A DNA stretch of 64,000 bases, taken from NCBI RefSeq assembly GCF_014279995.1, contig NZ_CP047935.1, forward strand, positions 903,243-967,242. The letters are read 5' to 3'. Shown here piece by piece: positions 30,921-58,423 of the stretch (the first letter of the stretch is position 1; the number at the start of each line of letters is the position of its first letter). Both the position numbers and the translations under genes were made by a program. The stretch comes from Synechococcus sp. BIOS-E4-1 (GTDB taxonomy: Bacteria; Cyanobacteriota; Cyanobacteriia; PCC-6307; Cyanobiaceae). A model generated the notes under the pieces. It did not search any database. It was given only the letters and a program-made list of their open reading frames with translations, and was not told where the DNA came from.

Positions 30921-30993
30921 GGGGCCATAGCTCAGCTGGTAGAGCACCTGCATGGCATGCAGGGGGTCAGGAGTTCGAGTCTCCTTGGCTCCA
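30921..30993 (+). tRNA. tRNA-Ala (GGC)
   Basis: A 73-nt cloverleaf: acceptor GGGGCCA pairs with TGGCTCC (one G-T), D-arm with AGCTCAGCTGGTAGAGC, anticodon stem CCTGC/GCAGG around loop ATGGCAT giving GGC, and TTCGAGT T-loop; A73 follows and CCA is not encoded. It is the integration site of the element that follows. Confidence 0.95.
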
Positions 30994-30996
30994 CTG
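30948..30996 (+). repeat. attL: 49-bp direct repeat in the tRNA-Ala 3' half
   Basis: These 49 bases, from the anticodon stem through the 3' end of tRNA-Ala plus CTG, recur without mismatch at 49095-49143. The recombination leaves the tRNA gene intact. Confidence 0.95.
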
Positions 30997-31076: not shown

Positions 31077-31144
31077 TAGAGCAGTTTTGCTCTACCTTTT
31101 GCTCTATGAATGACCCCCTGCATAGCGCAGGGCATTAGAGCAAA
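31077..31144 (+). promoter_or_regulatory. Cluster of TAGAGCAAA-type sites between attL and the integrase
   Basis: Sites at 31077-31083 (partial), 31086-31094, 31098-31106 (both reverse orientation) and 31136-31144. The same 9-mer recurs at 40676-40696 and near the right end (48977-48985, 49005-49013, 49017-49025). Their position suggests integrase arm-type or excisionase binding sites. Confidence 0.5.
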
Positions 31145-32451
31145 TGCCAAAGACGTTCAGTAAGCAAGGCACCTGGGATCACGATCTGCGACGCCAGATC
31201 AAGCGGGAGCATGGCACCGGCTGGACGCTTTATCCGCAGAGCAGCGGCACCAAGCTCACCCGTAGATATGAGGACGGAAAGAAGTCCAGCGTGATGCTGG
31301 AAATTGAATGGGCTCCGAGCTCTGCCACCGCGATCGCTAATGCCGTTGGCGTCCTGGCCGCACGGATGAATGAACACGACATCAGCCTGCGTGAAGCGCA
31401 CCGCCGATCGCAGCAAGTTGCTGGTGTGGTGACTGGCAAGGGTGTGGTGGCAGGTGCCATCGATTGGAGTGCTGCTGCCGATGCATTTCTGGAGACTCGC
31501 AGCGATCGCCGTGGCACGACCATGGCCGACACCAGCAAGCGCGTCAGAAATGCTGTTTCTCTCTTCGAAGCATCCCCACGCCCGACAGATGGCTCATCTC
31601 TGATGCGGGCGTACGCCCGCAACTTCTTTGATGGTTGTGCTCCAGGCGGTTCAGGCCGCAAGCGTCATCTCGGGGATGTTGCTGCATTTCTGAATTACGC
31701 GATCGACAAGTGTGGTGCGCCTGCTCGGTGGAAACCTCTGGAGGGGGAGGATCGAGACGTGCTGATCGGCACTTCAGATGAAGCTGACGACAATCTGACT
31801 CCCCCGATCAAGCCAGAGCAATTAGCGGCATTGCTTGATGCATTGATTGCTGATGAAAAGCATGAGCTCTGGATGGCGGTGGCTCTGGTCGGATGCTTTG
31901 GATTAAGACCAGCAGAACTTGCAGCTTTAGATGTTGAAGACGGCGAACTGATGGTGCGCAGCAACGTCAAATGCAATAAAAGCAGCATGAAAAAACAGAA
32001 GCTGCCGCGATTGGTGATTGCACTGGAGCTCGACGGTCGTGATGACGGAGCTCGGGCATTGGCGCAATATCAGCTGGGTCAGCTCAAGCTGCCGCGTGCA
32101 GTCCGTACGGCAATCGACAGCGGCGAATTTAAGAAGGTTGGAGATGCATTCAGACAGCTGTTGGATCGATACCCGTATTGGCAATCGTTAGTTGCAACGA
32201 CTCCTGATCTGACGCCCTACAGCCTGCGGCATGGATGGGCATGGAGAGCTCACAAGGGATACGCCACACCCCTGTCAGTCCGTGATGCAGCTGCGTTGCT
32301 GGGCCATACGCCTAACACTCACCATCGCCATTACGGACGCTGGACTGATCAACAGGGTCTGCGTGATGCAGTGAAGAAGATCACCCGTACGGCACCCCTT
32401 AGTGATCAATCAGGGCGCCAGAAAGCTCCACCACGCGCAGAAATAGTGTGA
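31144..32451 (+). CDS. int: Tyrosine recombinase/integrase
   Basis: The 435-residue protein has the C-terminal catalytic domain of site-specific tyrosine recombinases. Visible residues are R255 (GLRPAEL), Y359-S-L-R362-H363 (HxxR box with Tyr in place of the first His), LLGHTPNTHHRHYGRW with His/Trp, and the nucleophile Y397. The N-terminal about 45 residues are basic, as for arm-site binding. It starts 150 bp downstream of tRNA-Ala and reads away from it. A homologous N-terminal fragment lies outside attR at 49292-49417. It should catalyse integration and excision at the 49-bp att core. Confidence 0.95.
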   Translation: MPKTFSKQGTWDHDLRRQIKREHGTGWTLYPQSSGTKLTRRYEDGKKSSVMLEIEWAPSSATAIANAVGVLAARMNEHDISLREAHRRSQQVAGVVTGKGVVAGAIDWSAAADAFLETRSDRRGTTMADTSKRVRNAVSLFEASPRPTDGSSLMRAYARNFFDGCAPGGSGRKRHLGDVAAFLNYAIDKCGAPARWKPLEGEDRDVLIGTSDEADDNLTPPIKPEQLAALLDALIADEKHELWMAVALVGCFGLRPAELAALDVEDGELMVRSNVKCNKSSMKKQKLPRLVIALELDGRDDGARALAQYQLGQLKLPRAVRTAIDSGEFKKVGDAFRQLLDRYPYWQSLVATTPDLTPYSLRHGWAWRAHKGYATPLSVRDAAALLGHTPNTHHRHYGRWTDQQGLRDAVKKITRTAPLSDQSGRQKAPPRAEIV

Positions 32452-37444: not shown

Positions 37445-37609
37445 ATGAGAAATCGTACAAGGCAACTCCCGATAACGCACCTGCTGCGCGAATCAATCGC
37501 AGATCAGGTGGAGTCGTTAATCCTTTCAAGTCCTGAATGCAGCCGTACGGCTTCATATCAAGTGGATCGATTTGTCCTGGTCGCTGAACGTATTGGATCC
37601 GATTACTGA
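37445..37609 (+). CDS. Small protein coupled to the primase-helicase gene (54 aa)
   Basis: MRNRTRQLPITHLLRESIAD, then a helical middle and AERIGSDY. Its TGA overlaps the ATG of the primase-helicase (TACTGATG). Coupling and basic N-terminus support a real gene; no family known. Confidence 0.55.
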   Translation: MRNRTRQLPITHLLRESIADQVESLILSSPECSRTASYQVDRFVLVAERIGSDY

Positions 37610-39789
37610 TGTCTGAGCTCAAACCTGATCTAAACGCAGCTAAGACATTTCTCGACTTGCTCGGCAAGAACGGTGATGCTCGCTTCCGTGCATTCCCCCA
37701 TAAGCACACGCCACCAGAAATCAAGAGGCAGCTAAGAGCTCGCAAGATTAACGGTGATAGATCCAGTGATCGTGTCCTGAAAGCTCAGAACGATGGCTTA
37801 GGCATTTATCTCGTCATCAATCGCGGTGGCGATGACAAAGCATCCATCACTGAATGCATCGCCTACTTCGCGGAATTCGATGGCACTGCAGAAGCCGATC
37901 AGCTCCAGCGTGTAAACGACTCAGGATTGCCAGAACCATCGATCATCAATCGCACTGGTGGTGGCTCCCTCCACTTCTATTGGCTGCTTGATACGCCGAT
38001 CGCCAATAAAGCTCTCTGGCAGTCCGACATGAAGCGGCTCGCTGGTTATCTCGGCAGCGATAAGTCAGTGAATGACCCATCACGCGTGATGCGGCTGCCT
38101 GGATCCCTCTACATGGGACCTGATCAACAACCGATCGCTCTGGTGGAAACCATTCACGTCGGCGATGGCAGGTACACCCGTGAAGACATCATCAATGCGC
38201 TGCCAGCTGATCCGACGCCTCTGCTGGAGCAACCATCACCACAACCCGCTAGCGATCGCACTGCTGAACGAGCTCTAGATCAGCTCTATCGCATCCCTTC
38301 ACGCACTCCTGGCTCCAACACCAGAAATGCATATCTCCGTTTGCTCTGGGGGTTGGCTCACATCCTTGGCCCTGATCGTGCAGGTGCTGCCATGGCTGTT
38401 CACTCCCCTGCCTGGGCAGCTGAAGAGGACTTAGTCGAGAAAGCCCGTGAAGCTAACGGCGCCATCACTGACGGCACGTTCTTTGAGGTCGCCAAGAATG
38501 ATTTCAACGTCACTGATTCAACTGCTGATCAGACCTCAGCCAGAAATGGCAAGTCCTCACAACAGAGCAGCCACGTTGATGACGATGAACCCCTCGAAGA
38601 GCTCATTGCTCGCAAGGTCGGTGAACTGCTCGATCTCCGCCTGCTGACGCAAGACACCTGGGCCAAAGAAATGGCACTGATCGCTGAGCTCGGATGGCGT
38701 GGCTTGAAGCGACACGACATTGAAGAACGGATGTACGCCGCTCTGGCTAATCGCTGGAAACTAGCCATCAGCCAATCCCATAACAAGAAACGTCGCGGTC
38801 GATCACCAAACCAGACCCGTGAAGGAGAACAGCAACAAATGCTCGTTCACGGTTTTCTCCCCTGGAAACGTGATGCAGTTCTCTTCGGTGCTGGTGGTGT
38901 CGGCAAGACCACTGCAGCCGTACGGATCGCATGGTCTGCCATTACAGGTGAACCGCTCCTTGATTTCGAAATCCCTGGAGACATCACAGGCAAGGTCCTA
39001 TTCATTGGCTCTGATGGCGGCACAGGTGCCTACGACATGTGGCAGAACGCCGCTGAAGATCTCGGCATTGCCAACGATCCACGCTGGATTAATGGCTGCA
39101 CTCATTGGGGTGCTGATGAACACGACGGCATCGGTGCATGGTCTGTCACGCCAGCAGGTCTCCAAGAGCTCAAGACCGAGCTTGAAGAGAACAACTACGC
39201 ACTGGTCATCATCGATAGCTGGAAAGCTGTCCTGAGCCTTGCTGGCGTTGATTTCGGTATCGGACCTGTCGACACCATCGTTCGATTGATTCAAGCCCTG
39301 ATCGCTAAACACTGCAGCGGTCTTTATCTCCATCACCCCTCAGGCAATACAAAGGGCAAGGGCATCAGCGGGGCAGGCGGCAACCAGAACATCAATCAGA
39401 TTCCTTACGCCGTTCATGAGCTCCGCGTTGAACCTGTCTCTGATGACAGAGCCAAATGCGTTCGCTGGATTGCTCACAAGCTTCGTGGATACGTCTCCAG
39501 AGAGTTTCTTTATCGACTTGCACCCGATGGCTTTCAGATTGTCGAGGGTGAACTGGTCCGTAACTGCCGCGACGACATCCTGATCACCGTCTCTGACCTT
39601 GAGCAGATGGGGACCGCAACCACCAGTTACGCCATTCATAACCTGCTCTCTACGCGTAATGAATCCACTATCAGCAACAACCTCACCAAGCTCCGTCAAG
39701 ACGGTTTCCTTAAAAAGACAGGCTCTAGCTGGCATCTCACAGCCAAAGGCAAGCGCACTGTTACCGAGCTCACCAAGACACACGTATAG
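37609..39789 (+). CDS. Primase-helicase (RepB-type primase plus RepA-like AAA ATPase)
   Basis: The 726-residue protein joins two replication activities. Residues about 70-200 resemble an archaeo-eukaryotic-type primase of the RepB family (AYFAEFDG, INRTGGGSLHFYWLL, DPSRVMRLPGS). Residues about 410-600 are a RecA-fold RepA/DnaB-like ATPase with Walker A GAGGVGKT (427-434), Walker B LVIIDSWK (near 536) and YLHHPSG. A winged-helix end (ESTISNNLTKLRQDGFL) follows. It likely starts replication of the excised element at a nearby origin, possibly the intergenic 39790-40073. No stop or truncation is seen. Confidence 0.85.
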   Translation: MSELKPDLNAAKTFLDLLGKNGDARFRAFPHKHTPPEIKRQLRARKINGDRSSDRVLKAQNDGLGIYLVINRGGDDKASITECIAYFAEFDGTAEADQLQRVNDSGLPEPSIINRTGGGSLHFYWLLDTPIANKALWQSDMKRLAGYLGSDKSVNDPSRVMRLPGSLYMGPDQQPIALVETIHVGDGRYTREDIINALPADPTPLLEQPSPQPASDRTAERALDQLYRIPSRTPGSNTRNAYLRLLWGLAHILGPDRAGAAMAVHSPAWAAEEDLVEKAREANGAITDGTFFEVAKNDFNVTDSTADQTSARNGKSSQQSSHVDDDEPLEELIARKVGELLDLRLLTQDTWAKEMALIAELGWRGLKRHDIEERMYAALANRWKLAISQSHNKKRRGRSPNQTREGEQQQMLVHGFLPWKRDAVLFGAGGVGKTTAAVRIAWSAITGEPLLDFEIPGDITGKVLFIGSDGGTGAYDMWQNAAEDLGIANDPRWINGCTHWGADEHDGIGAWSVTPAGLQELKTELEENNYALVIIDSWKAVLSLAGVDFGIGPVDTIVRLIQALIAKHCSGLYLHHPSGNTKGKGISGAGGNQNINQIPYAVHELRVEPVSDDRAKCVRWIAHKLRGYVSREFLYRLAPDGFQIVEGELVRNCRDDILITVSDLEQMGTATTSYAIHNLLSTRNESTISNNLTKLRQDGFLKKTGSSWHLTAKGKRTVTELTKTHV

Positions 39790-41034: not shown

Positions 41035-42594
41035 GTGGATAACGGGATACAGCTAAGCCCATGGCAGAGAAAAGTTGCTGGATTACTGCAGAGCGTTGAT
41101 GAGCTCAACACGCTCGTATTGGCAGGCGGTCGAGGTGGTGGCAAGTCGATCCTGCTTGTGTGGATCATTGTTTATTACATGTTGCTGTATGGAGAGAAGT
41201 TCAACGGCGTATTGATCAGGGCTGATCTAGCTGGCTTACAGAAGCTGGAGACACTGCTGATAGAGCAGATCATGCGGATGATGCCTGGCAGCAGGTATCT
41301 GAAGGCCAAGAGGCGTTGGACAGCGAGCAATGGAGCGACGTTGCAGCTGATCCATATGGACGGCAACGACGGCTTCAACAAGATCCAGGGTGAGGACTTG
41401 AATTTCTGCGGCTGGGACGAGCTGGGGCAGGAAGCGGATCCACATGTGGTGCTGAGGGTGAGATCAAGCATGAGGAGCACAGATCCAACATGTCCGCCGA
41501 AGTTCATCGCTACCGCTAACCCGTTGGGTCCTGGATCTTGGTGGATCAGGGATTACATCGTTACCAAGGCAATGCCGAACAGGATCTTCACTTGTGAGTT
41601 CTTTGGTGCTCAGCCTGCGGTCTGGATCAAGTCCACTCTCAGGGATAACCCCTATCTCTCCAACCCAGATCAATACGAGAAGGAGTTGAGGGCGAGTTGC
41701 TTTGGCGATGAATCCAAGATTGCCGCTGAGGTGCTGGGCGAATGGGGGCAGGTCACTGCTGGCTTCTTTGGCTCTTGCCTGAGCATTGAAAGGTCAATGC
41801 TGCCCCGTGATTTTCAGATTCCTTGGTATCCCGACAAGAGCGGATCGTTTACTGAAAAGACCAAGGCACATTGGTGCTGGATTGGTGGTGACTGGGGCAC
41901 GGCCAGCCCTGCATGCGTCGTGCTGATGTGTCAGATCCAAGAGCCAATAATGGTCGGAGAGCGTCATATCGCCAGAGGTAGTTGGGTCTGCGTGGATGAG
42001 GAATACGTCTGTTCGATTCAGCCAGACGGATCAAAGGAATGGAATAGGGGTGATCGCTCATTAACTGCACCGCAGTTTGTGGAGCGAGTGAAAAAGCTCT
42101 ACATCCGCAATGGATTCACTGATTGGGTGATTCCGCCCCGCAGAGTGATCATGGATTCAGCAGTTACTGCACAGCTGGGTTTCGGCGGTCATAGCGATCC
42201 AGTGACACTGAGCACTGAATTTAAGAAGTACGGATGGTAAGTCACAGGCAGCCCTAAGAGTTCAAGGGCTGTGGGGTGGCAGCTGATGAAATTGTTGCTG
42301 TATCAGGCAGGCAGTGAAGAGCCTGGTTTGTATATCTCAGAGCGATGCGAGAGCCTCTGGGCGACGTTGCCTTATTGCATCAGTGATGATCGCAATCCTG
42401 AGGATATGGAGAAGGCTGCGCCTGATCACTCTGCTGATGCTGTGAGGTATGTATTGACTGCTGCTAATCAAGGCCAGCACAGCTATCGGCAATCACAGCG
42501 AAGTGGAGCGCACCCGCTGATGTGGGGCAATGAAGAGAAGCGGAGACGATATGTAGGAGGCGTACGGACGTACAAGCCAATGCCGATTCGTTGA
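41035..42594 (+). pseudogene. terL: Terminase large subunit interrupted by an in-frame TAA
   Basis: The protein is 401 residues to the TAA at 42238-42240 and continues in the same frame to 42594 (519 codons in all). The ATPase domain is intact: Walker A GGRGGGKS (31-38) and Walker B FCGWDELGQ (D128, E129). The nuclease domain starts at GGDWGTASP. The last nuclease motif, DHSADAVRYVL near codon 464, lies beyond the stop. Terminases pump DNA into capsids and cut it. Loss of this motif should abolish cutting unless the stop is suppressed. The start is GTG. Confidence 0.85.
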
Positions 42595-42704: not shown

Positions 42705-42986
42705 ATGTCCCCAGAAGAACTCAAAGACTTCCTCGCCAAAGTCGAAGGCGACACCAGTCTTCAGGAGAAACTAAAAACAGCAAAGTCACCTGTTGAAGTG
42801 TCCGGTATTGCGAGAGATCATGGTCATGAATTTGACGGCAAAATTAACGATATAAAAATCACCGAACTCTCTGATGAAGAACTTGAGTCATTTGCTGGAG
42901 GATTAAATCCTAGTGATTTATGCATTATTTCCGTTGTGACAGTCGCTGCGACAATGAAAAAGTGCTTGTGTCCATTCGATAGGTGA
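42705..42986 (+). CDS. Nif11-leader peptide precursor 1 of the array
   Basis: The precursor has 93 residues. The leader MSPEELKDFLAKVEGDTSLQ leads to the cleavage site LESFAGG. The core is about 27 residues with Cys in SDLCII and KKCLCPF, plus several Ser/Thr. This matches prochlorosin-type precursors, whose Ser/Thr are dehydrated and joined to Cys by a LanM enzyme in trans. Upstream CTATGA-like -10 and ACAGACCTG leader sequence resemble the array consensus. No terminator hairpin is evident before the next copy. Confidence 0.8.
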   Translation: MSPEELKDFLAKVEGDTSLQEKLKTAKSPVEVSGIARDHGHEFDGKINDIKITELSDEELESFAGGLNPSDLCIISVVTVAATMKKCLCPFDR

Positions 42987-43062
42987 TAAGTGCAAAATTG
43001 CATTCTAGACCCGCAACAGTTAAAGGCAGTAACTATCAGATATACATAATTCTGAACATCGT

Positions 43063-43071
43063 TGCTATAAT
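43063..43071 (+). promoter_or_regulatory. Extended -10 promoter element of precursor 2
   Basis: TTGCTATAAT (TGN-TATAAT) lies 22 bp before the start codon; the same TTGCTATAA core precedes most array members. Confidence 0.6.
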
Positions 43072-43092
43072 TGCGAAACAATTCTGATACTC

Positions 43093-43338
43093 ATGTCCGA
43101 AGAACAACTAAAGGCATTTCTCTCCAAAGCCAAGGACGACCAGTCCATTCAAGACAAACTAAAAGCAGCAAAGTCACCTGAAGACGTTGTGGGTATTGCT
43201 AAAGATCACGGCTTCGAATTCACTGCTGATAAGATTACTGATCTCAGTGAAGAGGAACTAGAAGGCGTGGCTGGAGGGTGTGGGGGAGGTGCAAGCCATT
43301 GTTGGAATCAAACTGAACATTGTATAAATACTGGCTGA
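43093..43338 (+). CDS. Nif11-leader peptide precursor 2
   Basis: The precursor has 81 residues. The leader MSEEQLKAFLSKAKDDQSIQ leads to LEGVAGG. The core after Gly-Gly is CGGGASHCWNQTEHCINTG: three Cys, Ser and Thr residues in 19 positions, enough for two or more thioether rings if modified. The TATAAT promoter lies just upstream and a hairpin terminator follows at 43395-43424. Confidence 0.85.
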   Translation: MSEEQLKAFLSKAKDDQSIQDKLKAAKSPEDVVGIAKDHGFEFTADKITDLSEEELEGVAGGCGGGASHCWNQTEHCINTG

Positions 43339-43394
43339 TTTCTGGAGGTATTTGAATAGTCTGATTTCCCCTCGGCTTCAAAATTTACACACTC

Positions 43395-43424
43395 AAACCC
43401 CCTGCTGCCGTAGGGGGTTTTTAT
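43395..43424 (+). terminator. Rho-independent terminator after precursor 2
   Basis: Stem CCCCCTGC/GTAGGGGG-type around a short loop followed by TTTTTATT. The same design recurs after other array members. Confidence 0.8.
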
Positions 43425-43463
43425 TACTTCAACAGTCTGACTAACACCGTAAATCAGCCTTCA

Positions 43464-43528
43464 ATACCTGGCGCGATTGAGTGCTTTAAGTATTAGCTAA
43501 AGACACTGCAGCAGACCATTGCTATAAA
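43464..43528 (+). promoter_or_regulatory. Conserved array promoter upstream of precursor 3
   Basis: Block ATACCTGGCGCGATTGAG (43464-43481), -35-like AAGACA (43500-43505), 17-bp spacer with CTGCAGCAGACC, and extended -10 TGCTATAAA (TATAAA at 43523-43528). The layout is repeated at four array members with the same 17-bp spacer. Confidence 0.7.
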
Positions 43529-43549
43529 TGCTGAACAGACCTGATATCC

Positions 43550-43849
43550 ATGTCCGAAGAACAACTCAAAGCGTTCCTAGAAAAGGTCAAAGCAGACACC
43601 AGCCTTCAGGAGAAACTCAAAGCTGCTGCTGATTCAGACGCAGTTCTTGCGATTGCAAAAGAGGCTGGATTTAATGTTTCTGCTGATGACTTGAAGAACG
43701 CTCAATCAGAGATTTACTTGAAGAACGCTCAATCAGAGATTTTTGGACTGACTGAGGAGGAGTTAGAAGGCGCGGCTGGAGGGGCCTGTAGGTACTGCAC
43801 CGACCGATGCCTCCGCCAGACCCGAGTTGTGGACTGCCTGAGCCTTTGA
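43550..43849 (+). CDS. Nif11-leader peptide precursor 3 (leader with internal duplication)
   Basis: The precursor has 99 residues. The leader MSEEQLKAFLEKVKADTSLQ continues into ADDLKNAQSEIYLKNAQSEI, where a 27-bp stretch is duplicated in tandem, before LEGAAGG. The core is ACRYCTDRCLRQTRVVDCLS plus a final Leu, with four Cys. The duplication lies in the leader helix just before the cleavage site and may alter recognition. A weak hairpin with a T-tract follows at about 43904-43934. Confidence 0.85.
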   Translation: MSEEQLKAFLEKVKADTSLQEKLKAAADSDAVLAIAKEAGFNVSADDLKNAQSEIYLKNAQSEIFGLTEEELEGAAGGACRYCTDRCLRQTRVVDCLSL

Positions 43850-43903
43850 TCATACCCCGAGTTGTGCCTGACAGACCCGAGTTGTTAAAAGCCTACTCAT
43901 TGC

Positions 43904-43934
43904 AAAGCCCCTGCCGCCGCATAGGTTTTTATTT
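43904..43934 (+). terminator. Weak terminator after precursor 3
   Basis: AAAGCCCCTGCCGCCGCATAGG followed by TTTTTATTT. It resembles the array terminator, but its stem has lost part of its pairing. Confidence 0.45.
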
Positions 43935-44212
43935 CTTCAATCACCCCATACCCACCATCAATCAGACCCAAATAGCATCCGATACCTGGCACCACTGACA
44001 ACAAAACAGTCAGCGCTTTCACCCGCCCAGTCGCCTAATCCATCCACAAAAAATACAAGGCAGAGCAAATAAAGCCTCAGCATTCTTTAGCCCTACATCT
44101 ATTCATATCCCCTCAACGCAGCTGCCAAATACTTCGCTCCATGTCGCCATCACGGATGTCATTCGCTCGTCTAAATCTCACCGCCACCTGATGCCACTCC
44201 TCTGGAATTTGA

Positions 44213-44503
44213 TTGAGACGCACATCAAAAGAGCAACTCAAAGCCTTCTTAGAAAAGGTCAAAGGCGACACCAGCCTGCAGGAGAAGCTCAAAGCAGCTG
44301 CTGATTCAGACGCAGTTCTTGCGATTGCGAAAGAGGCTGGGTTTAAGATTTCTGTTGAAGACTTGAAGAACGCTCAAGTCACAGAGCTTTCAGACGAGGA
44401 ATTGGAGGGCGCAGCTGGAGGGGATTCTGGAGGGGATTACCTGTCTTATGCAGGCTGCGACACTGGGAGATGTGGCGCCTGTAGCTGGGGCTGCCCAGGG
44501 TAA
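44213..44503 (+). CDS. Nif11-leader peptide precursor 4 (start codon apparently lost)
   Basis: The leader reads SKEQLKAFLEKVKGDTSLQ and ends LEGAAGG; the core includes DSGGDYLSYAGCDTGRCGAC followed by SWGCPG, with four Cys. Where other copies have ATG-TCC/TCA, this copy has ACA-TCA, so the usual start is gone and only a TTG at 44213 is available. The usual promoter block is not visible upstream. It may be silent or weakly translated. A terminator follows at 44541-44562. Confidence 0.7.
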   Translation: MRRTSKEQLKAFLEKVKGDTSLQEKLKAAADSDAVLAIAKEAGFKISVEDLKNAQVTELSDEELEGAAGGDSGGDYLSYAGCDTGRCGACSWGCPG

Positions 44504-44540
44504 TAGGTGGGGGCATCTGCGGATAGCCTACACACCCGCG

Positions 44541-44562
44541 AAAGCCCCAAGGGGTTTTTATT
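44541..44562 (+). terminator. Terminator after precursor 4
   Basis: AAAGCCCCAAGGGGTTTTTA: a short 4-5 bp stem with a T-run. Confidence 0.65.
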
Positions 44563-44610
44563 GGTTCAATCATCCCCAAAAAGTCCATCAATCAGACCCA
44601 AATAGCAATC

Positions 44611-44677
44611 GATACCTGGCACGATTGAGCGAAGTAAGTATTAGCCAAAGACACTGCAGTAGACCGTTGCTATAACC
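44611..44677 (+). promoter_or_regulatory. Conserved array promoter upstream of precursor 5
   Basis: GATACCTGGCACGATTGAG, AAGACA at 44649-44654, 17-bp spacer, TATAAC at 44672-44677 with TGC before it. Confidence 0.7.
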
Positions 44678-44699
44678 ATTAAAGACTCCCGATACTCAT

Positions 44700-45006
44700 G
44701 TCCGAATAACAACTGAAGGCATTCATTGCCAAAGTTCAAGCCGATACTTCACTGCAGGAACAGCTCAAAGCAGAAGGAGTTGATATTGTTGCTATTGCAA
44801 AGGCTGCAGGCTTCTGCATTACCGCAGATGACTTAAACATTCATCGCCAAAACCTGTCTAATGCAGAGCTTGAGGTTTTAGCTGGGGGACAACCACAAAC
44901 GGTAACTTACAATTGTGGGCGCTGCGCTTATACGCTAAACACCATTGGCTGCAACCCGGCGTGCGGCGCTAATCCTACGCTTGGCTGTGCTGAACGAACT
45001 GAATAG
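44700..45006 (+). pseudogene. Nif11-leader peptide precursor 5, nonsense at codon 4
   Basis: The frame starts ATG-TCC-GAA-TAA where paralogs have ATG-TCC-GAA-GAA, a single G-to-T change. The rest is intact: QLKAFIAKVQADTSLQ, ending AELEVLAGG, then a cysteine-rich core (QPQTVTYNCGRCAYTLNTIG and CNPACGANPTLGCAERTE) with five Cys. The core shares TLNTIGC with precursor 7, which suggests shared ancestry or exchange. Promoter and terminator are both kept. Confidence 0.8.
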
Positions 45007-45040
45007 CAGTCTACTTAACACCCTTTAAGCTAATCCCTCA

Positions 45041-45070
45041 AAAGCTCCTGCAGCGGCAGGTGCTTTTTAT
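45041..45070 (+). terminator. Terminator after precursor 5
   Basis: CTCCTGC-type stem (AAAGCTCCTGCAGCGGCAGG) followed by TGCTTTTTAT. Confidence 0.6.
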
Positions 45071-45107
45071 CTCTTCAATTACCCAAACAGCCAACAAATT
45101 AGCCTTC

Positions 45108-45173
45108 GATACCTGGCACGATTGAGCCCAGTAAGTATTAGCCAAAGACGCTGCAGCAGACCATTGCTTTAAT
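45108..45173 (+). promoter_or_regulatory. Conserved array promoter upstream of precursor 6
   Basis: CGATACCTGGCACGATTGAG, AAGACG at 45145-45150, 17-bp spacer, TTTAAT at 45168-45173. Confidence 0.65.
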
Positions 45174-45194
45174 TATTCAACGGACTTGATACCC

Positions 45195-45419
45195 ATGTCA
45201 GAAGAACAGCTCAAGGCTTTCCTTGCCAAAGCCAAGGATGACCAGTCCATTCAAGACAAACTAAAGGCAGCGAAGACTCCTGAAGACGTCGTAAGCATCG
45301 CTAAAGAACACGGCCACGAATTCACTGCTGATAAGATCACGGGGTTGACTGAACTCAGTGAAGAGGAGCTGGGAGGCGTGGCTGGTGGACTGGGAGTCAT
45401 GGGTCATAATCCACTTTGA
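45195..45419 (+). CDS. Nif11-leader peptide precursor 6 (cysteine-less core)
   Basis: The leader MSEEQLKAFLAKAKDDQSIQ ends LGGVAGG. The remaining core is only LGVMGHNPL, without Cys, Ser or Thr, so it cannot form lanthionine rings. The core may be eroded by a premature stop or frameshift, since the following 150 bp holds repeated TAGAGGGGGA. The first start TTG at 45186 is less likely than ATG 45195. Confidence 0.75.
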   Translation: MSEEQLKAFLAKAKDDQSIQDKLKAAKTPEDVVSIAKEHGHEFTADKITGLTELSEEELGGVAGGLGVMGHNPL

Positions 45420-45587
45420 GGGACCAAATTTCCTGATCGATTTCTATGTAGAAGTGAAGGTAGAGGGGGATTTGCTAATTGGTAGAGGGGGATTATACGG
45501 ACCGAGGTCGTCTAACAAGGGATTAAATTCACTGCTGTGGGTTGGGATGATTCTGTTATTTGGTGATGGATTCTGAGCCTACTCATC

Positions 45588-45617
45588 AAACCCCCTGCTG
45601 CCGTAGGGGCTTTTTAT
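45588..45617 (+). terminator. Terminator after precursor 6
   Basis: AAACCCCCTGCTGCCGTAGG then GGCTTTTTAT, nearly identical to the terminator at 43395-43424. Confidence 0.8.
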
Positions 45618-45652
45618 AACTTCAACAGTCTGACTAATCCCACAAGTCAGCC

Positions 45653-45721
45653 TTCATTGCCTGGCACGATTGAGCGCAGTAATTGTTAGCCAAAGACGCT
45701 GCAGCAGACCTTTGCTATGAT
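45653..45721 (+). promoter_or_regulatory. Conserved array promoter upstream of precursor 7
   Basis: TTGCCTGGCACGATTGAGCG, AAGACG at 45693-45698, 17-bp spacer, TATGAT at 45716-45721. Confidence 0.65.
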
Positions 45722-45749
45722 TCTTAAGTAACCAACACAAGATCATGCA

Positions 45750-46040
45750 ATGTCTGCTTTAGAGGATCTTTTGAATGCCATAACGACGAATCCTGAACTC
45801 AGGAACTCGATTACGGCCGCTACCTCTACGGAGGAAGCTGTGAGAATTGCTGCAGACGCCGGCATTCAAATCAGTGCTGATGACCTTCTCTCAGCATTCC
45901 AATCCAAAATGTCTGAACTTTCAGCTGAAGAACTCGAGGCAGTGTCTGGGGGTAAAGTTAATCCAGTGAATTCGCTTAACACAATTGGTTGCGGTATGAA
46001 GGGAAACACACAATTGGTTGCCTGTAGCGGAAGGAACTAA
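45750..46040 (+). CDS. Nif11-leader peptide precursor 7 (divergent leader)
   Basis: The precursor has 96 residues. The leader MSALEDLLNAITTNPELRNS is more diverged than the others but keeps ADAGIQISADDLLSAFQ and ends LEAVSGG. The core KVNPVNSLNTIGCGMKGNTQ then LVACSGRN has two Cys and several Ser/Thr. It has the array promoter. An upstream ATG lies out of frame, so 45750 is the likely start. Confidence 0.75.
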   Translation: MSALEDLLNAITTNPELRNSITAATSTEEAVRIAADAGIQISADDLLSAFQSKMSELSAEELEAVSGGKVNPVNSLNTIGCGMKGNTQLVACSGRN

Positions 46041-46206
46041 ACCCCGATTCTTGGAGACTAATTGCGTAGAAGGAAGCTGTGCCAATTCTCGATTCTGAAA
46101 TTGAACTAAGAACATTAGCTATAATATCCGTAAAATAAAATCTATTGAATGCGTTGCAACAACCAAGGGGTTTTAGAGATCCAATACTATTAATCGTTGG
46201 AAGTAC

Positions 46207-46362
46207 CGTAAGATTGCCGCTGGTAACGACATTCAAATAAGTGCTGATAATCTACTCATGGCATTGAGTTGAAATAGCAAAACAAAGAACAAGAAACTAA
46301 AGGAAGTTTCTGGTGGCGTGAATTCGACTAGTAAAAGCCTGAAACAACGTATTAATCAATAA
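46207..46362 (+). pseudogene. Remnant of a Nif11-leader peptide gene
   Basis: The frame reads KIAAGNDIQISADNLLMALS, an in-frame TGA, then NSKTKNKKLKEVSGG and a short Ser/Lys-rich core. It is closest to precursor 7 and lacks the N-terminal leader half. It decays through loss of the start and one stop. Confidence 0.65.
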
Positions 46363-46577
46363 ACCCTACAAGCTAATAATATACACTAATAACCACGACT
46401 GCTGACTAACAACATATTTACCAAAAGCCAATGGTTGTAGAGGCTTTTCATTGCATCAATAGCCTGACTAATCTCACAAATCAGCCTTCAATATCTGGCA
46501 CGATTGAGCGCAGTTGAGCAGAGATAGATAAAACCGACTTTTTAGAATGGGGTTGTAAATGGGACATTGCAGCCCAC

Positions 46578-47054
46578 ATGAAATTCACACCAAAGCAGAT
46601 TCAATTGTTGAATCGCGCTTGCAAGATGGCAGGCATTGATTCAAGCAAGATCAGCCCGACTAATCCATTCGAGAAGAGTGGATCTACTGCGGGAATGTTG
46701 CAGGCAGCGATTGCAGAATTAGATCCAGCGCAGGCTGCTAGGTGGCGCGTTGCTACTGGTGGATCGCTGAGTGTGGCGACGATGGCGGAGCTGCAGGGTG
46801 GTGAGGAGCTAAGTGCTGCGGCGCAGGCTGATCTGTGGGCGCATGATCCTGAATTTGTTGCTGAGTTTCAGCAGCAGTGAGAGAAGGGGCTTGAGGCACA
46901 GATGAAGGCATTGGAGCGCGGTGCTGAAGAGAAGCGTTTTCAGAACACGCTTCTGCAGGCCGGTGGTGATGAGCGCCAGGCGAAGCGAATGATTGCAGCG
47001 CAGGACGCAGAGCAAGCCGCTCGTGAACAGCAACGTCAGGGAGTGATGAGCTGA
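46578..47054 (+). pseudogene. Element gene with in-frame TGA (phage structural-like)
   Basis: The frame begins MKFTPKQIQLLNRACKMAGI and is interrupted by TGA at 46878-46880 (codon 101), but continues in the same frame with a coiled-coil sequence (KGLEAQMKALERGAEEKRF) to TGA at 47052-47054, which overlaps the next start (TGATG). The coupling to the next gene suggests that the full 158-residue frame was the ancestral gene. Function unknown. Confidence 0.65.
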
Positions 47055-49094: not shown

Positions 49095-49143
49095 CTGCAT
49101 GGCATGCAGGGGGTCAGGAGTTCGAGTCTCCTTGGCTCCACTG
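49095..49143 (+). repeat. attR: 49-bp direct repeat of tRNA-Ala 3' half
   Basis: Identical over 49 bp to 30948-30996. No full tRNA is rebuilt here, only the 3' half. Confidence 0.95.
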
Positions 49144-49291: not shown

Positions 49292-49417
49292 GTGCCCAAG
49301 ACCAACGCCAAAGCGAACGCCTGGGTTTTTGACCTGCGCCGTCAAATCAAGCGCGAACACGGTGCGGACTGGAAGGTCCAAGAGCAAAGTGGCAGGGCCA
49401 GTTCTTGTTCGGCATGA
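49292..49417 (+). pseudogene. Integrase N-terminal remnant outside attR
   Basis: GTG-started 41-residue frame: PKTNAKANAWVFDL then RRQIKREHGADW, matching the resident integrase start (PKTFSKQGTWDHDL, RRQIKREHGTGW) before diverging at SGRASSCSA and a stop. The DNA before it (CCCCTGCATGGCGCAGGG) also matches the sequence before the resident integrase. It marks the left end of a second related element. Confidence 0.85.
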
Positions 49418-50472: not shown

Positions 50473-50594
50473 ATTGCACTGGAGTCATGGCGTCACCAGA
50501 TCCTGAACGAGCTAAACCCAGTCAAGAACTATGTTCTGAGCCATTCACAAGATGCTCACCAGAACCTATTGGGGTCTGCACCAGAGCTGTGTAG
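50034..50594 (+). pseudogene. Ferritin copy 1, C-terminally truncated
   Basis: Residues 1-139 match the intact ferritin at 53361 almost completely (GPAGRAMAEPMS, YLAAAIWFAERELTGFAEHL, FADYLISRGQRPVLDTIEPP). After EKDIDRR the frame enters SPAKCGAFYC, which is the translated terminator hairpin of the ancestral gene. A 219-bp deletion between GCA triplets joined the two. The last ferritin helices are lost, so ferroxidase and cage assembly are doubtful. The downstream about 45 residues are not ferritin. Confidence 0.85.
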
Positions 50595-50668
50595 TGGGGT
50601 TCACCAGAAGGACTGTGATCTTGAAGGAGTCGAGGGCGCAACACCCCTAAACATGCACTCCTAAAACC

Positions 50669-54565: not shown

Positions 54566-56233
54566 TCAGCGGGGTAAGCCTGTTGCCTTGAGCAATTCAA
54601 GCGCAAGGCCTTCTGCCTCCTTCGGCCAAATGGCGGTATCAAAATATAGCCTGGCAAGTTGGATGTTGTAATTTTGAATGGCGTTGATTTCTACCTGAAT
54701 TGCTCTTTGATACAATCCAACTAACTGGTTGATGGTAGTTACATCCGAAACACCTGCGTTTAATCGTGCCATTGAAGCGATATAGCTTATTCTTGCTGAC
54801 TGAGCCGCCGCATCAGAAGAAATGTATTTTAGTCGATTAGACTTCAGAGCATTGATGCTTGTTCTGACACTTGCAATCAGTTCATCACGAATATCTTTGG
54901 CCTTAAATTCTGCGGATTTTGATTGGGCGAAATCACTGCTTGCCAGGGCATCATTGACGCCTCCCTGATAAAAACGCCAATTGAAAAAAATGCCTGCAGA
55001 GATGTCATATGAAGCATTATTATTAAACGTGAAATTTCGTCTTGTCTCAGATGAATTGCTGCTTGCATTGGAAGATCCTGAGGCGAAAGTCTTTTTATAA
55101 GAATCTGATGAGTTGTTCTCTAGACTAGCTCTAGACTTTAGAGAGAAACTAGGCAGTGTTTGGTTGATTTGAGCAATGCCTCGAGAATTGAATTCTTTGG
55201 CGTTCTCTAAAGCTTCTAGTATTCGATCATTATTCAATTGAGCTAAGTCAATCGATTCTTTTAATCCAAAGATCCATTCACCAGCAAATTGATTTTCTCC
55301 TTCTGTCAGTATGAGAGGTTCACCAGGCAAAGAAACAAGTTTCGCAAGTTTGTTTGATAACGCATAGTAACGTTCTATATATTGCGTTAAATCTGACAGG
55401 GTACTGAAAAATTGAGCATGGGCTTGGCCTACCTCTCCTAGATGTGTTAGACCAGCACCAAAGCGAGAATCGTTTAACAGGACTATATTTTTATAAGATT
55501 CAGCGATGATTTCATAAGAATTTATCAGTTCTTGTGTAGCGAGAAGTTGATAGTAGATATCCTGAATATCAAAAATAAGTCGTCGTGAAGCTAAGTAAAA
55601 ACCATATCTCTGCTTACTGTAATTAGAAGTTGCTGCATTGATCTTGGGTTGCCGACTAAAATCAAGAAATGTCCAACTTAGTTCTCCTATTAAGCTTTGA
55701 GGATATGAGGATGTGCTGCCCGAGGTTCTTGTATAGCCTCGTTTGCTTGGCGATAAATTAAGCTGCTTTACACGTGTAATTTCATTTGTAGTTCTATTCT
55801 TTACACTCGAATCACCTGTTATGCCAGCAGTCGGATTCCAAGAGCGAGATTCAGCAATTAATCTATCCCGACTTGCTTTTAATAATTCAATTTCAGATTT
55901 TAAACTTGGATTGTTAGCAAAGGCAACTGATATACATTCATCTAGACTAAGGGTTGTTGATTGATTGGGATCAATAGATGTAGCCTTAAAATCTTCGATA
56001 ATACTCAGGAGTCCCTGATCGTCAAGAGCTTTCAGCTCTTTTATATAGTGACCTACCGGCATTTCAATGGGATTAAGATCATCTTGTGTGATTTTTTGAG
56101 CTTTTGCAGGATAACAAGTTGTCGGGAGGAGCAATAGAGTCAGCAAAGTCACTCTTACATAAGAGGCTCTTCTTTTCAACATAGTGAAGAAAAAGATCTT
56201 CATTTGAACCATACTTTGAGTGAATTTAATCAT
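54566..56233 (-). CDS. tolC: TolC-family outer membrane efflux protein
   Basis: The 555-residue protein has a signal peptide (LLTLLLLPTTCYPAKAQ), then two OEP-type repeats of long helices (LKSEIELLKASRDRLIAESR, and KAKDIRDELIASVRTSINAL) with strand segments that would form the barrel. It is the last gene of the four-gene export operon and would give the channel across the outer membrane. Its start lies 3 bp after the ABC2 stop. Confidence 0.85.
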   Translation of the reverse strand: MIKFTQSMVQMKIFFFTMLKRRASYVRVTLLTLLLLPTTCYPAKAQKITQDDLNPIEMPVGHYIKELKALDDQGLLSIIEDFKATSIDPNQSTTLSLDECISVAFANNPSLKSEIELLKASRDRLIAESRSWNPTAGITGDSSVKNRTTNEITRVKQLNLSPSKRGYTRTSGSTSSYPQSLIGELSWTFLDFSRQPKINAATSNYSKQRYGFYLASRRLIFDIQDIYYQLLATQELINSYEIIAESYKNIVLLNDSRFGAGLTHLGEVGQAHAQFFSTLSDLTQYIERYYALSNKLAKLVSLPGEPLILTEGENQFAGEWIFGLKESIDLAQLNNDRILEALENAKEFNSRGIAQINQTLPSFSLKSRASLENNSSDSYKKTFASGSSNASSNSSETRRNFTFNNNASYDISAGIFFNWRFYQGGVNDALASSDFAQSKSAEFKAKDIRDELIASVRTSINALKSNRLKYISSDAAAQSARISYIASMARLNAGVSDVTTINQLVGLYQRAIQVEINAIQNYNIQLARLYFDTAIWPKEAEGLALELLKATGLPR

Positions 56234-56236
56234 CTT

Positions 56237-58423
56237 TTAACCGCCCTCATTGTCATGCATGATTTTCGAAAAATATGAAGAGTTTTCCAAACATTCTTCA
56301 AATGAACCAGAATATTCGACGCTCCCTCCATTGAGAATGATCATGTGATCACAATCACGAATGGCGGTTAGTCGATGGGCGATGACAATGCGCGTAATGC
56401 CGATCTCTTTGAGATTCCCAATGATGACTTTTTGTGAATAATTATCCAATGCAGATGTTGATTCGTCTTCAATCAACATTGATGGCCGCCTCAAAAGAGC
56501 ACGCGCAATACTAAGTCGTTGTCTTTGCCCCCCGGAGATATTTGTAGCACCTTCGGATAAAATTGTTTCTAGCTTCATTGGTAATGATTGAATTTCTTCT
56601 TCAAGATTAACCATTTTAAGTGTCTCCCATATTTGCTCATCTGGTGTCAATAATCCAGAAGTCAAAGCATCCCTAATTGAGGACACCGATAGAGCTGTAG
56701 ATTGCAGGACTGTGCCTATTTGAGACCTTAGGTTTTTAATATCCAGTTCATTGATCTCACGACCATCAATAAAAATACTACCACTTTGAATGGGATAAAA
56801 TCCTAAAATTATTGAAACAACAGTCGATTTCCCGCAACCACTAGCCCCAAAGATGACATTAAATTTGCCGGGATAAAGTTTAAATGATGCATCTGAAAGC
56901 ACGTATCGGTCTGAATCTGGATAGGCAAAATAAACATTTTTGAATTCAATTAAGCCTTTAAGCTCAATACGCTCCAATTGGGAATTCAACCCTGGCTCAG
57001 GACCTTGACGAATCAAAGGAATAGACCGTTCAAAATCAACCAGGGACCTACCTAGAATATTATTAAATAGCTCTACAAGTTCAATAAATTTGGCCGCAAA
57101 ATTAGAAAATGCGTTTTGGAAGACGATAAAAGTTGATGTACTTAGTACGACTTCGTCAATATTTTTTGCATTGAGCAAACGGTAAATGAGTACACCGTAG
57201 ATCAACGACAGCCCAAAATTATCTAAAAATTTTGAAATGATCCGATTGTAATCAGAAAATATGCTAACTTTAAAGCTTAACGATGAGACAGAGAAAATAT
57301 ACTGTGACCACCTATTTAAAATGGTTTTCTCTTTCCCATTGGTTCGAATTTGTGCAATGTTATTGATAGATTGAAGTGACTCATCAAAAAAGTCGGCCTT
57401 GCGTTCTACAAGTTTACGCTCATACATAAGCCGCCTTCGAAATAGTATTGTTTGTACAATTGCCGCTATTAATATGAATAATAGGGCTGGAATACTTAAA
57501 TAAAGATCATAATAAAGCATCATGCCGATAAATCCAATGAGAGATATCAGGCCGATCACAGATGAAAGAGCTGATGACGAGAGTGACCTAAGAATATTAT
57601 TAACTGACATCGCTCTTGACGAGAGATCTCCTGTTTTATATTGATCAAGAAAATAAACTGGATATGAGAGGATTCTGTGGTAAAGGGGGATTTGAATCCT
57701 GAGATTTAATTTTTGATTGAATCTGAGTAAATAGAATGACTGGATCCATCTAAGTGCGGTTGAGTATAATGCAATCAGTATCGAAATAATAAAAGTTGAG
57801 ATAATCCACTTGAGATTACCGCTCGGGACAACATCACCAACGACACGAGCCGTGATAATCGGCCCCAATAATGCGAATGCTGTGACCAGAATTGATAGTA
57901 ATAATGCTCTGGTTAAGTCTGGGCGAATTGCAGGGAATGAAAATTTAATTAACTTCCAAAATGTATCTAGTGATTCTGGAAATACAGGGTAGATTTCATA
58001 GACAGAGTTAGAGAAACTATTTGCCGATAAATTAATTGCAATGCTGGTATTATCTTGTGCACTATATGCATATACTTTGGATCCTCTAGAATAAATAATC
58101 AGGGCAGTCGAATCATGCTCGCGAATACAAACGATAGGTATTTGTTCGTATTTTGACCTGTCTTGATTCATTGAAGACAGCCTGAAATAAAATCCATTTG
58201 AAGTCAATAAGTCTTCAAGACTGCCTCTCAATTGAACAGGTGTTTTAGAATCTAATCCACTAATGTCGCGCAATTTATTGATTAAATTTTCGCTTTCATA
58301 ATTAGCACTTTGCCCATCAGTGATTGTCGCTCCGATTGATGTTGCGATATCAAGTGTTAGAAGAGAGCGTATTGCTCCTGAAGTATGTTGCAAGCTTGTT
58401 TTTGATGGTTTTGAATTTTTCAC
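56237..58423 (-). CDS. NHLM-type ABC transporter, second ATP-binding/permease subunit
   Basis: The 728-residue protein has a roughly 150-residue N-terminal domain without the catalytic Cys of a C39 peptidase, about six transmembrane segments (FALLGPIITARVVGDVVP and so on), then a nucleotide-binding domain with Walker A GASGCGKST near 524, signature NISGGQRQRLSIARALL and the H-loop AHRLTAI. Such peptidase-less partners pair with C39 ABC proteins in the NHLM (Nif11/nitrile-hydratase leader) system. Its start overlaps the ABC1 stop by 4 bp. Confidence 0.85.
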   Translation of the reverse strand: MKNSKPSKTSLQHTSGAIRSLLTLDIATSIGATITDGQSANYESENLINKLRDISGLDSKTPVQLRGSLEDLLTSNGFYFRLSSMNQDRSKYEQIPIVCIREHDSTALIIYSRGSKVYAYSAQDNTSIAINLSANSFSNSVYEIYPVFPESLDTFWKLIKFSFPAIRPDLTRALLLSILVTAFALLGPIITARVVGDVVPSGNLKWIISTFIISILIALYSTALRWIQSFYLLRFNQKLNLRIQIPLYHRILSYPVYFLDQYKTGDLSSRAMSVNNILRSLSSSALSSVIGLISLIGFIGMMLYYDLYLSIPALLFILIAAIVQTILFRRRLMYERKLVERKADFFDESLQSINNIAQIRTNGKEKTILNRWSQYIFSVSSLSFKVSIFSDYNRIISKFLDNFGLSLIYGVLIYRLLNAKNIDEVVLSTSTFIVFQNAFSNFAAKFIELVELFNNILGRSLVDFERSIPLIRQGPEPGLNSQLERIELKGLIEFKNVYFAYPDSDRYVLSDASFKLYPGKFNVIFGASGCGKSTVVSIILGFYPIQSGSIFIDGREINELDIKNLRSQIGTVLQSTALSVSSIRDALTSGLLTPDEQIWETLKMVNLEEEIQSLPMKLETILSEGATNISGGQRQRLSIARALLRRPSMLIEDESTSALDNYSQKVIIGNLKEIGITRIVIAHRLTAIRDCDHMIILNGGSVEYSGSFEECLENSSYFSKIMHDNEGG

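What the first reader, a model, noticed from the sequence alone, without database searches (positions are those of the whole stretch)
42705..46362. Mobile array of eight Nif11-leader peptide cassettes with shared promoter and terminator
Eight related precursor genes lie in 3.7 kb inside an integrated element. Most of them have a conserved block (TACCTGGCACGATTGAG), an AAGACA -35, a 17-bp spacer, an extended -10 and a hairpin with T-run. Cores range from Cys-rich (five Cys) to none. This looks like a cassette system that duplicates whole transcription units while diversifying cores.
Basis: partly seen in the sequence, partly recalled or inferred. Interest (0 to 1): 0.88.

Follow-up and report, generated by a model that had tools for sequence, protein, structure and literature searches.

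The report
Shuffled peptide-gene cassettes inside satellite element
A marine cyanobacterium carries about two hundred small peptide genes built from interchangeable parts, and the array in this window sits inside a phage-like integrated element; the parts look as if they have been recombined with one another across the genome rather than simply copied next door, which could help explain how such peptides become so diverse.

Summary
The array is real: five intact and three damaged Nif11-leader (prochlorosin/SyncA-type) precursor genes in an 18.1-kb element bounded by a 49-bp repeat of a tRNA-Ala 3' end. The genome holds at least 184 complete leaders; in 75 the conserved block lies exactly 83 nt before the ATG. 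In the window it precedes four of eight genes. Genome-wide it behaves as the 3' end of the preceding cassette: 4 of 51 array-first genes have it upstream, 88 of 133 others. Block, promoter and leader stay 63-72% identical; cores match no better than shuffled DNA, yet 93% of 181 carry Cys. Duplication of whole transcription units is not the main mode: the nearest relative lies in the same array in about 4% of cases, near chance, linkage between segments decays within about 100 nt, and identical cores occur with different leaders and promoters. Best reading: short-tract recombination between dispersed cassettes, with conserved stretches as homology arms, carried by satellites with a conserved cargo slot. 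The peptide family is known; the modular anatomy and mosaic evolution look new, but two key papers could not be read.

The parts
30948..30996 (+). left attachment repeat (3' part of the tRNA-Ala gene 30921-30994)
   Evidence: 49-bp exact direct repeat with 49095-49143
31144..32451 (+). tyrosine integrase next to the tRNA
   Evidence: phrog_1 integrase 8.4e-16; 98% identical copy at the same tRNA in relative G016
37609..39789 (+). primase/helicase-like replication protein of the element
   Evidence: phrog_36873 1.7e-20, Pfam AAA_25
41035..42594 (+). terminase large subunit, interrupted by an in-frame stop (pieces 41035-42240 and 42271-42594); left border of the cargo slot
   Evidence: phrog_2 1.2e-20; in-frame stop; same order in G028 and G012
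42705..42986 (+). cassette 1: leader plus core LNPSDLC..., 3 Cys; no block upstream
43093..43338 (+). cassette 2: core CGGGASHCWNQTEHCINTG, identical over 60 nt to a core in relative G028 under another promoter
43395..43420 (+). terminator hairpin with T-run after cassette 2
43467..43549 (+). block (43467-43480) plus promoter A and 5' UTR, ATG at +83
43550..43849 (+). cassette 3: 4-Cys core; 27-nt tandem duplication in the leader
44213..44503 (+). cassette 4: no ATG, upstream region unlike promoter A; 4-Cys core
44615..44697 (+). block plus promoter A of cassette 5
44698..45007 (+). cassette 5: stop at codon 4; 5-Cys core
45112..45194 (+). block plus promoter A of cassette 6
45195..45419 (+). 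cassette 6: short core without Cys
45660..45749 (+). block plus promoter A of cassette 7 (90 nt)
45750..46040 (+). cassette 7: divergent Nif11 leader, 2-Cys core
   Evidence: Pfam Nif11 2.1e-08
46142..46362 (+). cassette 8: degenerate remnant of a leader like cassette 7
46494..46514 (+). orphan block closing the array, followed by TTGAGCAGAGAT... instead of a promoter
   Evidence: the same junction at 3 other places of the genome, 94, 90 and 80% identical
46578..46880 (+). p46578, right border of the cargo slot
   Evidence: 8 of 8 in-genus homologs found by the search have a Nif11 leader stretch directly upstream
49095..49143 (+). right attachment repeat
54566..62093 (-). export genes outside the element: TolC/HlyD-like ORFs, ABC transporter, ABC transporter with C39 peptidase (58420-60663)
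   Evidence: Pfam for the two ABC proteins; the TolC and HlyD names are read by eye from the ORFs, not tested

Best explanation
The array is cargo of a phage-satellite-like element integrated in tRNA-Ala. Each cassette is [promoter - Nif11 leader - core - terminator - block] and encodes a prochlorosin (SyncA)-type precursor. By inference it is modified in trans by the genome's ProcM-like LanM enzymes and exported by a C39 ABC transporter. New peptides arise mainly by short-tract homologous recombination (gene conversion or ectopic crossover, probably RecA-dependent) between about 200 dispersed cassettes. The leader on one side and the terminator/block/promoter stretch on the other act as homology arms, so cores are moved into other leader and promoter contexts and each segment gets its own history; point changes and indels alter the core further, under selection to keep Cys. 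Elements with a conserved cargo slot (terminase - cassettes - p46578) spread arrays between places and strains. Shown: anatomy, fixed spacing, mosaic pairs, linkage decay, slot conservation. Inferred: the recombination enzyme, transcription, modification, export, mobility.
For: Segment identities among 92 block-type cassettes (1500 sampled pairs): block 72%, promoter 67%, leader 71 and 63%, core 42.6% against 41.7% shuffled. All 181 cores of at least 8 aa differ; 93% have Cys, Cys frequency 11.6% against 3.5% in shuffled DNA. Leader pS 0.63 against pN 0.24. Linkage in 71 cassettes: correlation of 28-nt distance matrices 0.35, 0.10, 0.07, 0.04, -0.01 with distance and r2 from 0.161 to 0.014 (= 1/n), where a clonal simulation of matched identity is flat (0.07-0.09; 0.018); r2 also declines in relative G028, n = 30. 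Five of 10 near-identical-core pairs have more mismatches in the 5' leader than in leader end plus core (p 4.9e-5 to 3.5e-11; two of the five share one gene), e.g. 20/124 against 0/120 for window cassette 2, where 12 of 20 differing 5' leader codons are synonymous. In 6 of 11 such pairs (three of the six being one triangle) the upstream regions are no more alike than shuffled sequence (shuffled maximum 59%). Two LanM with CCG motif. Slot: 8 of 8 in-genus p46578 homologs found, and a truncated one in G028, have cassettes upstream; a distant homolog in G090 has none.
Against: The enzyme is not identified. Five of 10 pairs are not significant (p 0.066 to 1), and two pairs are copies of the whole unit. 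At matched identity the clonal simulation also gives low long-range linkage (0.07-0.09), so the short-range excess carries the inference; misalignment or multi-base mutation could add to it. In G028 the window correlations (0.21, 0.08, 0.08, 0.01, 0.12) are close to the simulated 0.07-0.12 except at the shortest distance. Adjacent cassettes are the best upstream match more often than expected (7 of 184 against 1.5), so local duplication also occurs. Three of eight window cassettes are broken and the terminase has an in-frame stop, so this copy may be decaying and may not move. No transcript or peptide data.
Confidence: 0.62

Rival explanations
1. Tandem duplication of whole transcription units followed by fast divergence of cores.
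For: Units are tandem and alike; 2 of 10 near-identical-core pairs are alike across upstream, leader and core (1346257/G028, 1958113/2490227); adjacent cassettes are the best match by upstream region in 7 of 184 against 1.5 expected, by leader in 3 against 1.4, by 3' flank in 4 against 1.4.
Against: Best match in the same array in 7, 7 and 8 of 184 (chance 4.7-4.9); nearest neighbours by upstream region and by 5' leader agree in 3 of 75 (chance 1.8), though those of leader start and leader end agree in 8 of 75 (chance 1.7); linkage decays; identical cores under diverged leaders.
Confidence: 0.15
2. A site-specific or transposase-driven cassette system: the block is a recombination end, as in integrons or TnpAREP/REP elements, and units are inserted and lost at it.
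For: Array-first genes mostly lack the block (4 of 51 have it); 36 of 137 blocks are orphans, and after GCGCAGT the sequence switches between a promoter and TGAGCAG or other flanks. Published association of prochlorosin genes with TnpAREP, seen only as a citation and a reference entry in PMC10783134.
Against: One Y1 transposase match in the whole genome, at 2.096 Mb, in none of the arrays; no inverted repeat at the block by eye; identity islands around transferred cores end inside leader and 3' flank, not at the block; the few flank types may reflect few events inherited many times.
Confidence: 0.15
3. A relic: cassettes carried and decaying in a defective prophage or satellite, without present function.
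For: Three of eight cassettes and the terminase are damaged; the genome list also has leaders with internal stops, and 28 of 212 leader stretches are partial.
Against: Leader pS well above pN, Cys kept in cores, fixed promoter geometry also in relatives, two LanM of about 1100 aa with the CCG motif and a C39 transporter.
Confidence: 0.08

Closest known systems
Prochlorosins / synechococsins (ProcA/SyncA with ProcM/SyncM)
   Same: Nif11 leader ending in GG, hypervariable Cys-rich core, many precursors scattered over the genome, CCG-type LanM acting in trans, C39 export genes. PMC10783134 (outline and abstract, first of three parts of the Results, and found passages seen) reports up to 83 precursors in one strain.
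   Different: At least 184 complete Nif11 leaders here, though a leader count is not the same measure as that paper's prochlorosin count. The terminator-block-promoter module with fixed geometry and the mosaic linkage pattern are not described in the parts I saw (its main text has no occurrence of 'promoter' or 'terminator'). It names horizontal transfer and core indels as the mechanisms.
TnpAREP-associated lanthipeptide genes (Laurenceau et al., preprint, not held; only its reference entry seen)
   Same: Idea that a mobile-DNA mechanism spreads prochlorosin genes.
   Different: This genome has a single Y1 transposase match, away from the arrays.
Tycheposons and other phage satellites (features recalled; only listings seen)
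   Same: Integration at a tRNA by a tyrosine integrase, replication gene, terminase, cargo.
   Different: Cargo is a peptide cassette array of varying length in a fixed slot; no capsid gene was recognised among the ten proteins scanned; mobility untested.
Integron cassette arrays and antigenic-variation cassettes (recalled)
   Same: Arrays of variable units between conserved sequence; reassortment of variable segments.
   Different: Many cassettes have their own promoter; no attC-like site seen by eye; no single expression locus.

Membership tests
Prochlorosin/SyncA precursors | Nif11-type leader (TIGR03798) over cut-off, ending in a double-Gly motif | tested here: met
   Five of the window's eight are among the 150 scored genome matches, all over the cut-off, one with an internal stop; cassettes 1, 7 and 8 are not in that capped list; cassette 7 matches Pfam Nif11; GG visible in all eight, in the eighth only in a broken frame
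Prochlorosin/SyncA precursors | hypervariable core with Cys and Ser/Thr for thioether rings | tested here: met
   181 of 181 cores distinct, 93% with Cys plus Ser/Thr; window cassette 6 has no Cys
Prochlorosin/SyncA precursors | ProcM-like LanM with CCG motif in the genome | tested here: met
   Of three DUF4135 matches, two proteins of 1106 and 1119 aa have CHG and CCG; the third (832 aa) lacks them
Prochlorosin/SyncA precursors | lanthionine-bearing secreted product | not testable with these tools
   needs mass spectrometry
TnpAREP/REP mobile elements | Y1 transposase gene associated with the repeats | tested here: not met
   one PF01797 match in the genome, at 2096494, in none of the arrays
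Integron cassettes | IntI integrase and folded attC sites | not tested
   block shows no inverted repeat by eye; no IntI or attC search was run
tRNA-integrated satellite/tycheposon-like element | tyrosine integrase at a tRNA and direct att repeats | tested here: met
   second att copy (at least 40 of 49 bases) at the same tRNA in 4 of 8 relatives, and a weaker one in G005
tRNA-integrated satellite/tycheposon-like element | packaging in helper phage particles and transfer | not testable with these tools
   terminase present but with an in-frame stop; no relatives of p46578 or of cassette 3 confirmed in viral contigs

The most novel reading that the evidence does not exclude
The genome runs a dedicated, genome-wide diversity generator: about 200 peptide cassettes behave as one freely recombining pool, and the block is the recognition end of a specific, not yet known cassette-exchange activity, supplied by the satellites that carry the slot, that fits new cores to ready-made promoters and leaders.
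Probability: 0.12. Interest if true: 0.9.

Novelty: new variant of a known kind. Interest (0 to 1): 0.62.

Why it matters
How prochlorosins become so diverse while one enzyme type processes them all is an open question; the mechanisms named in PMC10783134 are horizontal transfer and core indels. If cores are exchanged through conserved arms, diversity arises by recombination in a pool of paralogs, which is testable by strain comparison and with a recA mutant, and the arms would be natural sites for building peptide libraries. A conserved cargo slot in tRNA-integrated elements would also give these genes a route between strains.

Tried and rejected
Block as an operator of the promoter it precedes: rejected, because array-first genes use other 5' regions without it and many orphan copies score as high as the others. 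TnpAREP as the mover in this genome: not supported. Translational bypass in the terminase: considered and rejected, since the two pieces are in one frame with a single in-frame stop; a homolog in another genus is intact, and the copy at 2.255 Mb has a stop at nearly the same place. Known RNA family for the alternative 5' module B1: no Rfam match at gathering score in six sources, none credible at E up to 10 for one copy. Phage or viral-contig carriers: p47054 in genome contigs, p46578 and cassette 3 in viral contigs gave no confirmed relative (the tool may leave out records of this or very near genomes); seven exact 16-mer block matches in viral contigs were not examined. Terminase relatives among phage records (327) are all below 60% identity, the best listed about 26%. 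Syntenic comparison of the array at 1.34 Mb: the flank is found in six relatives; the stretches fetched beyond it in four (L152-L155, about 4 to 12 kb each) hold no leader or block by my scan, so that array looks absent there; exact ends were not worked out. Strain name: size and richness suit Synechococcus BIOS-E4-1 (CRD1), from recall plus passages of PMC7522525 (most genes in its set); not proven. Dropped before counts: locus L035 (overlaps the window), stretches under 25 bits, for 'complete' counts 28 of 212 stretches with a partial leader, and three cores under 8 aa. One search tested 10 of the 11 pairs with core identity of 94% or more; the third side of one triangle was left out. One search used 184 genes in 56 arrays. 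One search covered 849 of 3,314 kb. One search gave pS and pN, its dN/dS came out undefined.
Full report
What is there. The window is bases 903243-967242 of a 3,314,220-base genome held as one contig. Between a tRNA-Ala gene (30921-30994) and an exact 49-bp copy of its 3' part at 49095-49143 lies an 18.1-kb element with a tyrosine integrase, a primase/helicase-like protein, a SprT-like protein and a terminase large subunit. The array lies between the terminase and a small gene, p46578. Of its eight Nif11-leader stretches five are intact; the fourth lacks an ATG, the fifth has a stop at codon 4, the eighth is a remnant. Cores have 3, 3, 4, 4, 5, 0 and 2 Cys in cassettes 1 to 7 (cassette 2 recounted by eye from the GG of the leader).

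Genome-wide anatomy. TIGR03798 gives 150 scored matches in this genome, all over the cut-off, out of 276 first-look candidates (capped). In the clusters fetched around them and the window my own HMM finds 212 leader stretches above 25 bits, 184 of them complete. In 65 cassettes with up to 2 mismatches in the block and the block at -83, about 110 nt upstream are conserved...AATCAGCCTTCAATACCTGGCACGATTGAGCGCAGTAATTATTAGCCAAAGACACTGCAG...TTGCTATAAC...ACCTGATACCC-ATG. Aligned on the block, 129 3' flanks show a terminator at a fixed place; 63 of 120 stop-to-block spacers have a hairpin with T-run against 0 of 120 after one letter shuffle each, with the stem ending a median 44 nt before the block. 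So about 100 nt of terminator and block, 83 nt of block-to-start and about 190 nt of leader repeat, with the core and the start of the 3' flank variable between them.

What the block is. 137 blocks were found; 92 precede promoter and gene, 36 are orphans, 9 are partial cases. Array-first genes have it upstream in 4 of 51 cases, other genes in 88 of 133; last genes have it downstream in 16 of 48, others in 100 of 136. After GCGCAGT comes either promoter A or, in 26 of the 36 orphans counted by eye, TGAGCAG or a close variant leading to one of several flanks: an alternative 210-nt 5' region (B1), a stretch that at 1181.6 kb ends at a tyrosine integrase and at 2807.5 kb at a serine-recombinase-like ORF, the latter named by eye (B2), or the gene p46578 (B3). 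It therefore seems to belong to the end of the preceding cassette rather than to the regulation of the next.

Relatives. With a 16-base block pattern at up to 2 mismatches, 31 genomes of the genus give 132 hits in the window's genome, 77 in G028, 31 in G025, 27 in G016 and 11 or fewer in the others (the reversed control gives 0-2 per genome). Nif11 leader matches in these four are at least 135, 117, 46 and 43 (at most 135 candidates scored per genome). G012 (53 leaders) and G018 (38) have only 6 and 3 pattern hits, like genomes with few leaders, so arrays exist mostly without this exact block; G012 does hold at least one close copy followed by promoter A (L163). In fetched loci the block lies at -83 in 30 of 51 G028, 10 of 23 G025 and 3 of 3 G016 complete genes; G012, G005 and G022 have a variant at -92 to -97 in 5 of 18, 4 of 10 and 1 of 6, and G018 none in 8.

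Slot and element. The window's right flank recurs at three other places of the genome (94, 90 and 80%), each with a Nif11 leader stretch just upstream, at 1564 kb only a fragment next to it. In 151 genomes of the family p46578 has matches in 4: all 4 places in the window's genome and all 4 in G012 have a leader stretch directly upstream; G090, in another genus (35% identity), has the terminase followed by the p46578 homolog without cassettes; the G074 match has neither in the 3.3 kb held. G028, not among the matches listed there, has one cassette between the same borders, its p46578 matching over residues 1-53 only. At the tRNA-Ala site all 8 relatives searched have the tRNA; 4 of 8 have a second att copy in the stretch fetched, G005 a weaker one, and G016 a 98% identical integrase; cassettes lie in the stretches of G025, G009, G028 and G012 and not in those of G016, G018, G005 or G022.

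Divergence. Among 92 block-type cassettes (1500 random pairs) median identity is 72% (block), 67% (promoter), 71% (first 100 nt of leader), 63% (last 60 nt), 42.6% (core) against 41.7% for shuffled cores. Yet 93% of 181 cores have Cys, at 11.6% of residues against 3.5% in shuffled DNA and 3.8% in the other frames, and over the first 28 leader codons of 150 genes pS is 0.63 against pN 0.24 (3000 pairs). Cores are thus little constrained in order but selected for composition.

How it changes. (a) Nearest relatives by upstream region, leader and 3' flank lie in the same array for 7, 7 and 8 of 184 genes, against 4.9, 4.7 and 4.9 by permutation; directly adjacent ones are in excess for the upstream region (7 against 1.5) and slightly for leader (3 against 1.4) and 3' flank (4 against 1.4). 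(b) For 71 cassettes the correlation between 28-nt windows falls 0.35, 0.10, 0.07, 0.04, -0.01 and r2 falls from 0.161 within 3 nt to 0.014 beyond 100 nt, the value 1/n; simulations on the FastTree tree scaled fourfold to reach the observed identity are flat at 0.07-0.09 and 0.018 (unscaled: 0.20-0.26 and about 0.03). In G028 (n = 30) the correlations are 0.21, 0.08, 0.08, 0.01, 0.12 and r2 falls from 0.169 to 0.040, against flat 0.07-0.12 and 0.037-0.040; there only the short range stands out. Low long-range values are partly expected at this divergence, so the short-range excess is the informative part. (c) All-against-all core BLAST over the window's genome and the fetched loci of seven relatives gives 34 pairs; 11 have core identity of 94% or more, and in 6 of these (three of them one triangle) the upstream regions are at the level of shuffled sequence. 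Of 10 tested, five have significantly more changes in the 5' leader than in leader end plus core (p 5.8e-7, 9.4e-6, 3.2e-5, 4.9e-5, 3.5e-11; the second and third share one gene), two are near 0.07 and three are not significant, two of these being whole-unit copies or orthologs. Identity profiles of the five show islands of about 150-300 nt around the core. In four of the five the core has no difference at all while the 5' leader has 7 to 15 synonymous codon differences, which argues for transfer rather than selection on the peptide.

Reading. The peptides belong to the prochlorosin/SyncA kind: leader, core type, two CCG-type LanM and a C39 transporter were tested; the product was not. The mechanism best supported is recombination through the conserved arms in a dispersed pool, with satellites as vehicles. 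In the listings of the open-library searches I saw no paper whose title or abstract start describes this for prochlorosins, but I read only parts of one paper on them, and the 2017 evolution paper and the TnpAREP preprint are not held, so priority cannot be claimed.

Side result. The alternative 5' module B1, with repeated CACCAG (30 copies aligned), also precedes genes that are not Nif11: short double-glycine peptides (such as ...LTDDQLEAAQGG...) and small proteins with a signal-peptide-like start, including one in this window at 50669 (named by eye). It may mark a shared control of secreted peptides.

Noticed in passing
window 50533-50673 and other places of the genome (30 copies aligned): A conserved 5' module (B1, about 110-210 nt with repeated CACCAG ending near the ATG) precedes Nif11 precursors, other double-glycine peptides and small signal-peptide-like proteins; no Rfam match.
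   Followed up: partly
window 41035-42594: Terminase large subunit carries an in-frame stop; the copy at 2.255 Mb has one at nearly the same place, and an intact homolog exists in another genus (G090).
   Followed up: partly
window 49292-49390: Piece similar to the first 33 residues of the integrase just beyond the right att repeat, suggesting remains of a second element at the same tRNA; G016 also has an integrase piece beyond its second att copy.
   Followed up: no
L039 about 2105-2240, L061, L105, L054 and others: A shared stretch (B2) after orphan blocks ends in ...CAACTCCGACTCCCTGGC, after which a tyrosine integrase, a serine-recombinase-like ORF, another promoter class or, at 2502.6 kb, the block itself follows.
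   Followed up: partly
window about 21905-22159, minus strand: A lone Nif11-leader gene (genome 925147) outside the element, with a short double-glycine peptide ORF just upstream (by eye).
   Followed up: no
window 1511-15349: One ORF of 4612 aa made of trimeric-autotransporter (YadA-head)-like repeats, by eye.
   Followed up: no
window 50034-50594 and 53361-53942: Two very similar ferritin-like ORFs a few kb apart (by eye); the first loses the similarity part way.
   Followed up: no
window 43689-43742: Exact 27-nt tandem duplication inside the leader of cassette 3.
   Followed up: no
genome 1342.5-1349 kb (L043): The flank of this array is found in six relatives, and in the four whose next stretch was fetched no cassette follows, so this is a candidate empty site for mapping the ends of an array.
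   Followed up: partly
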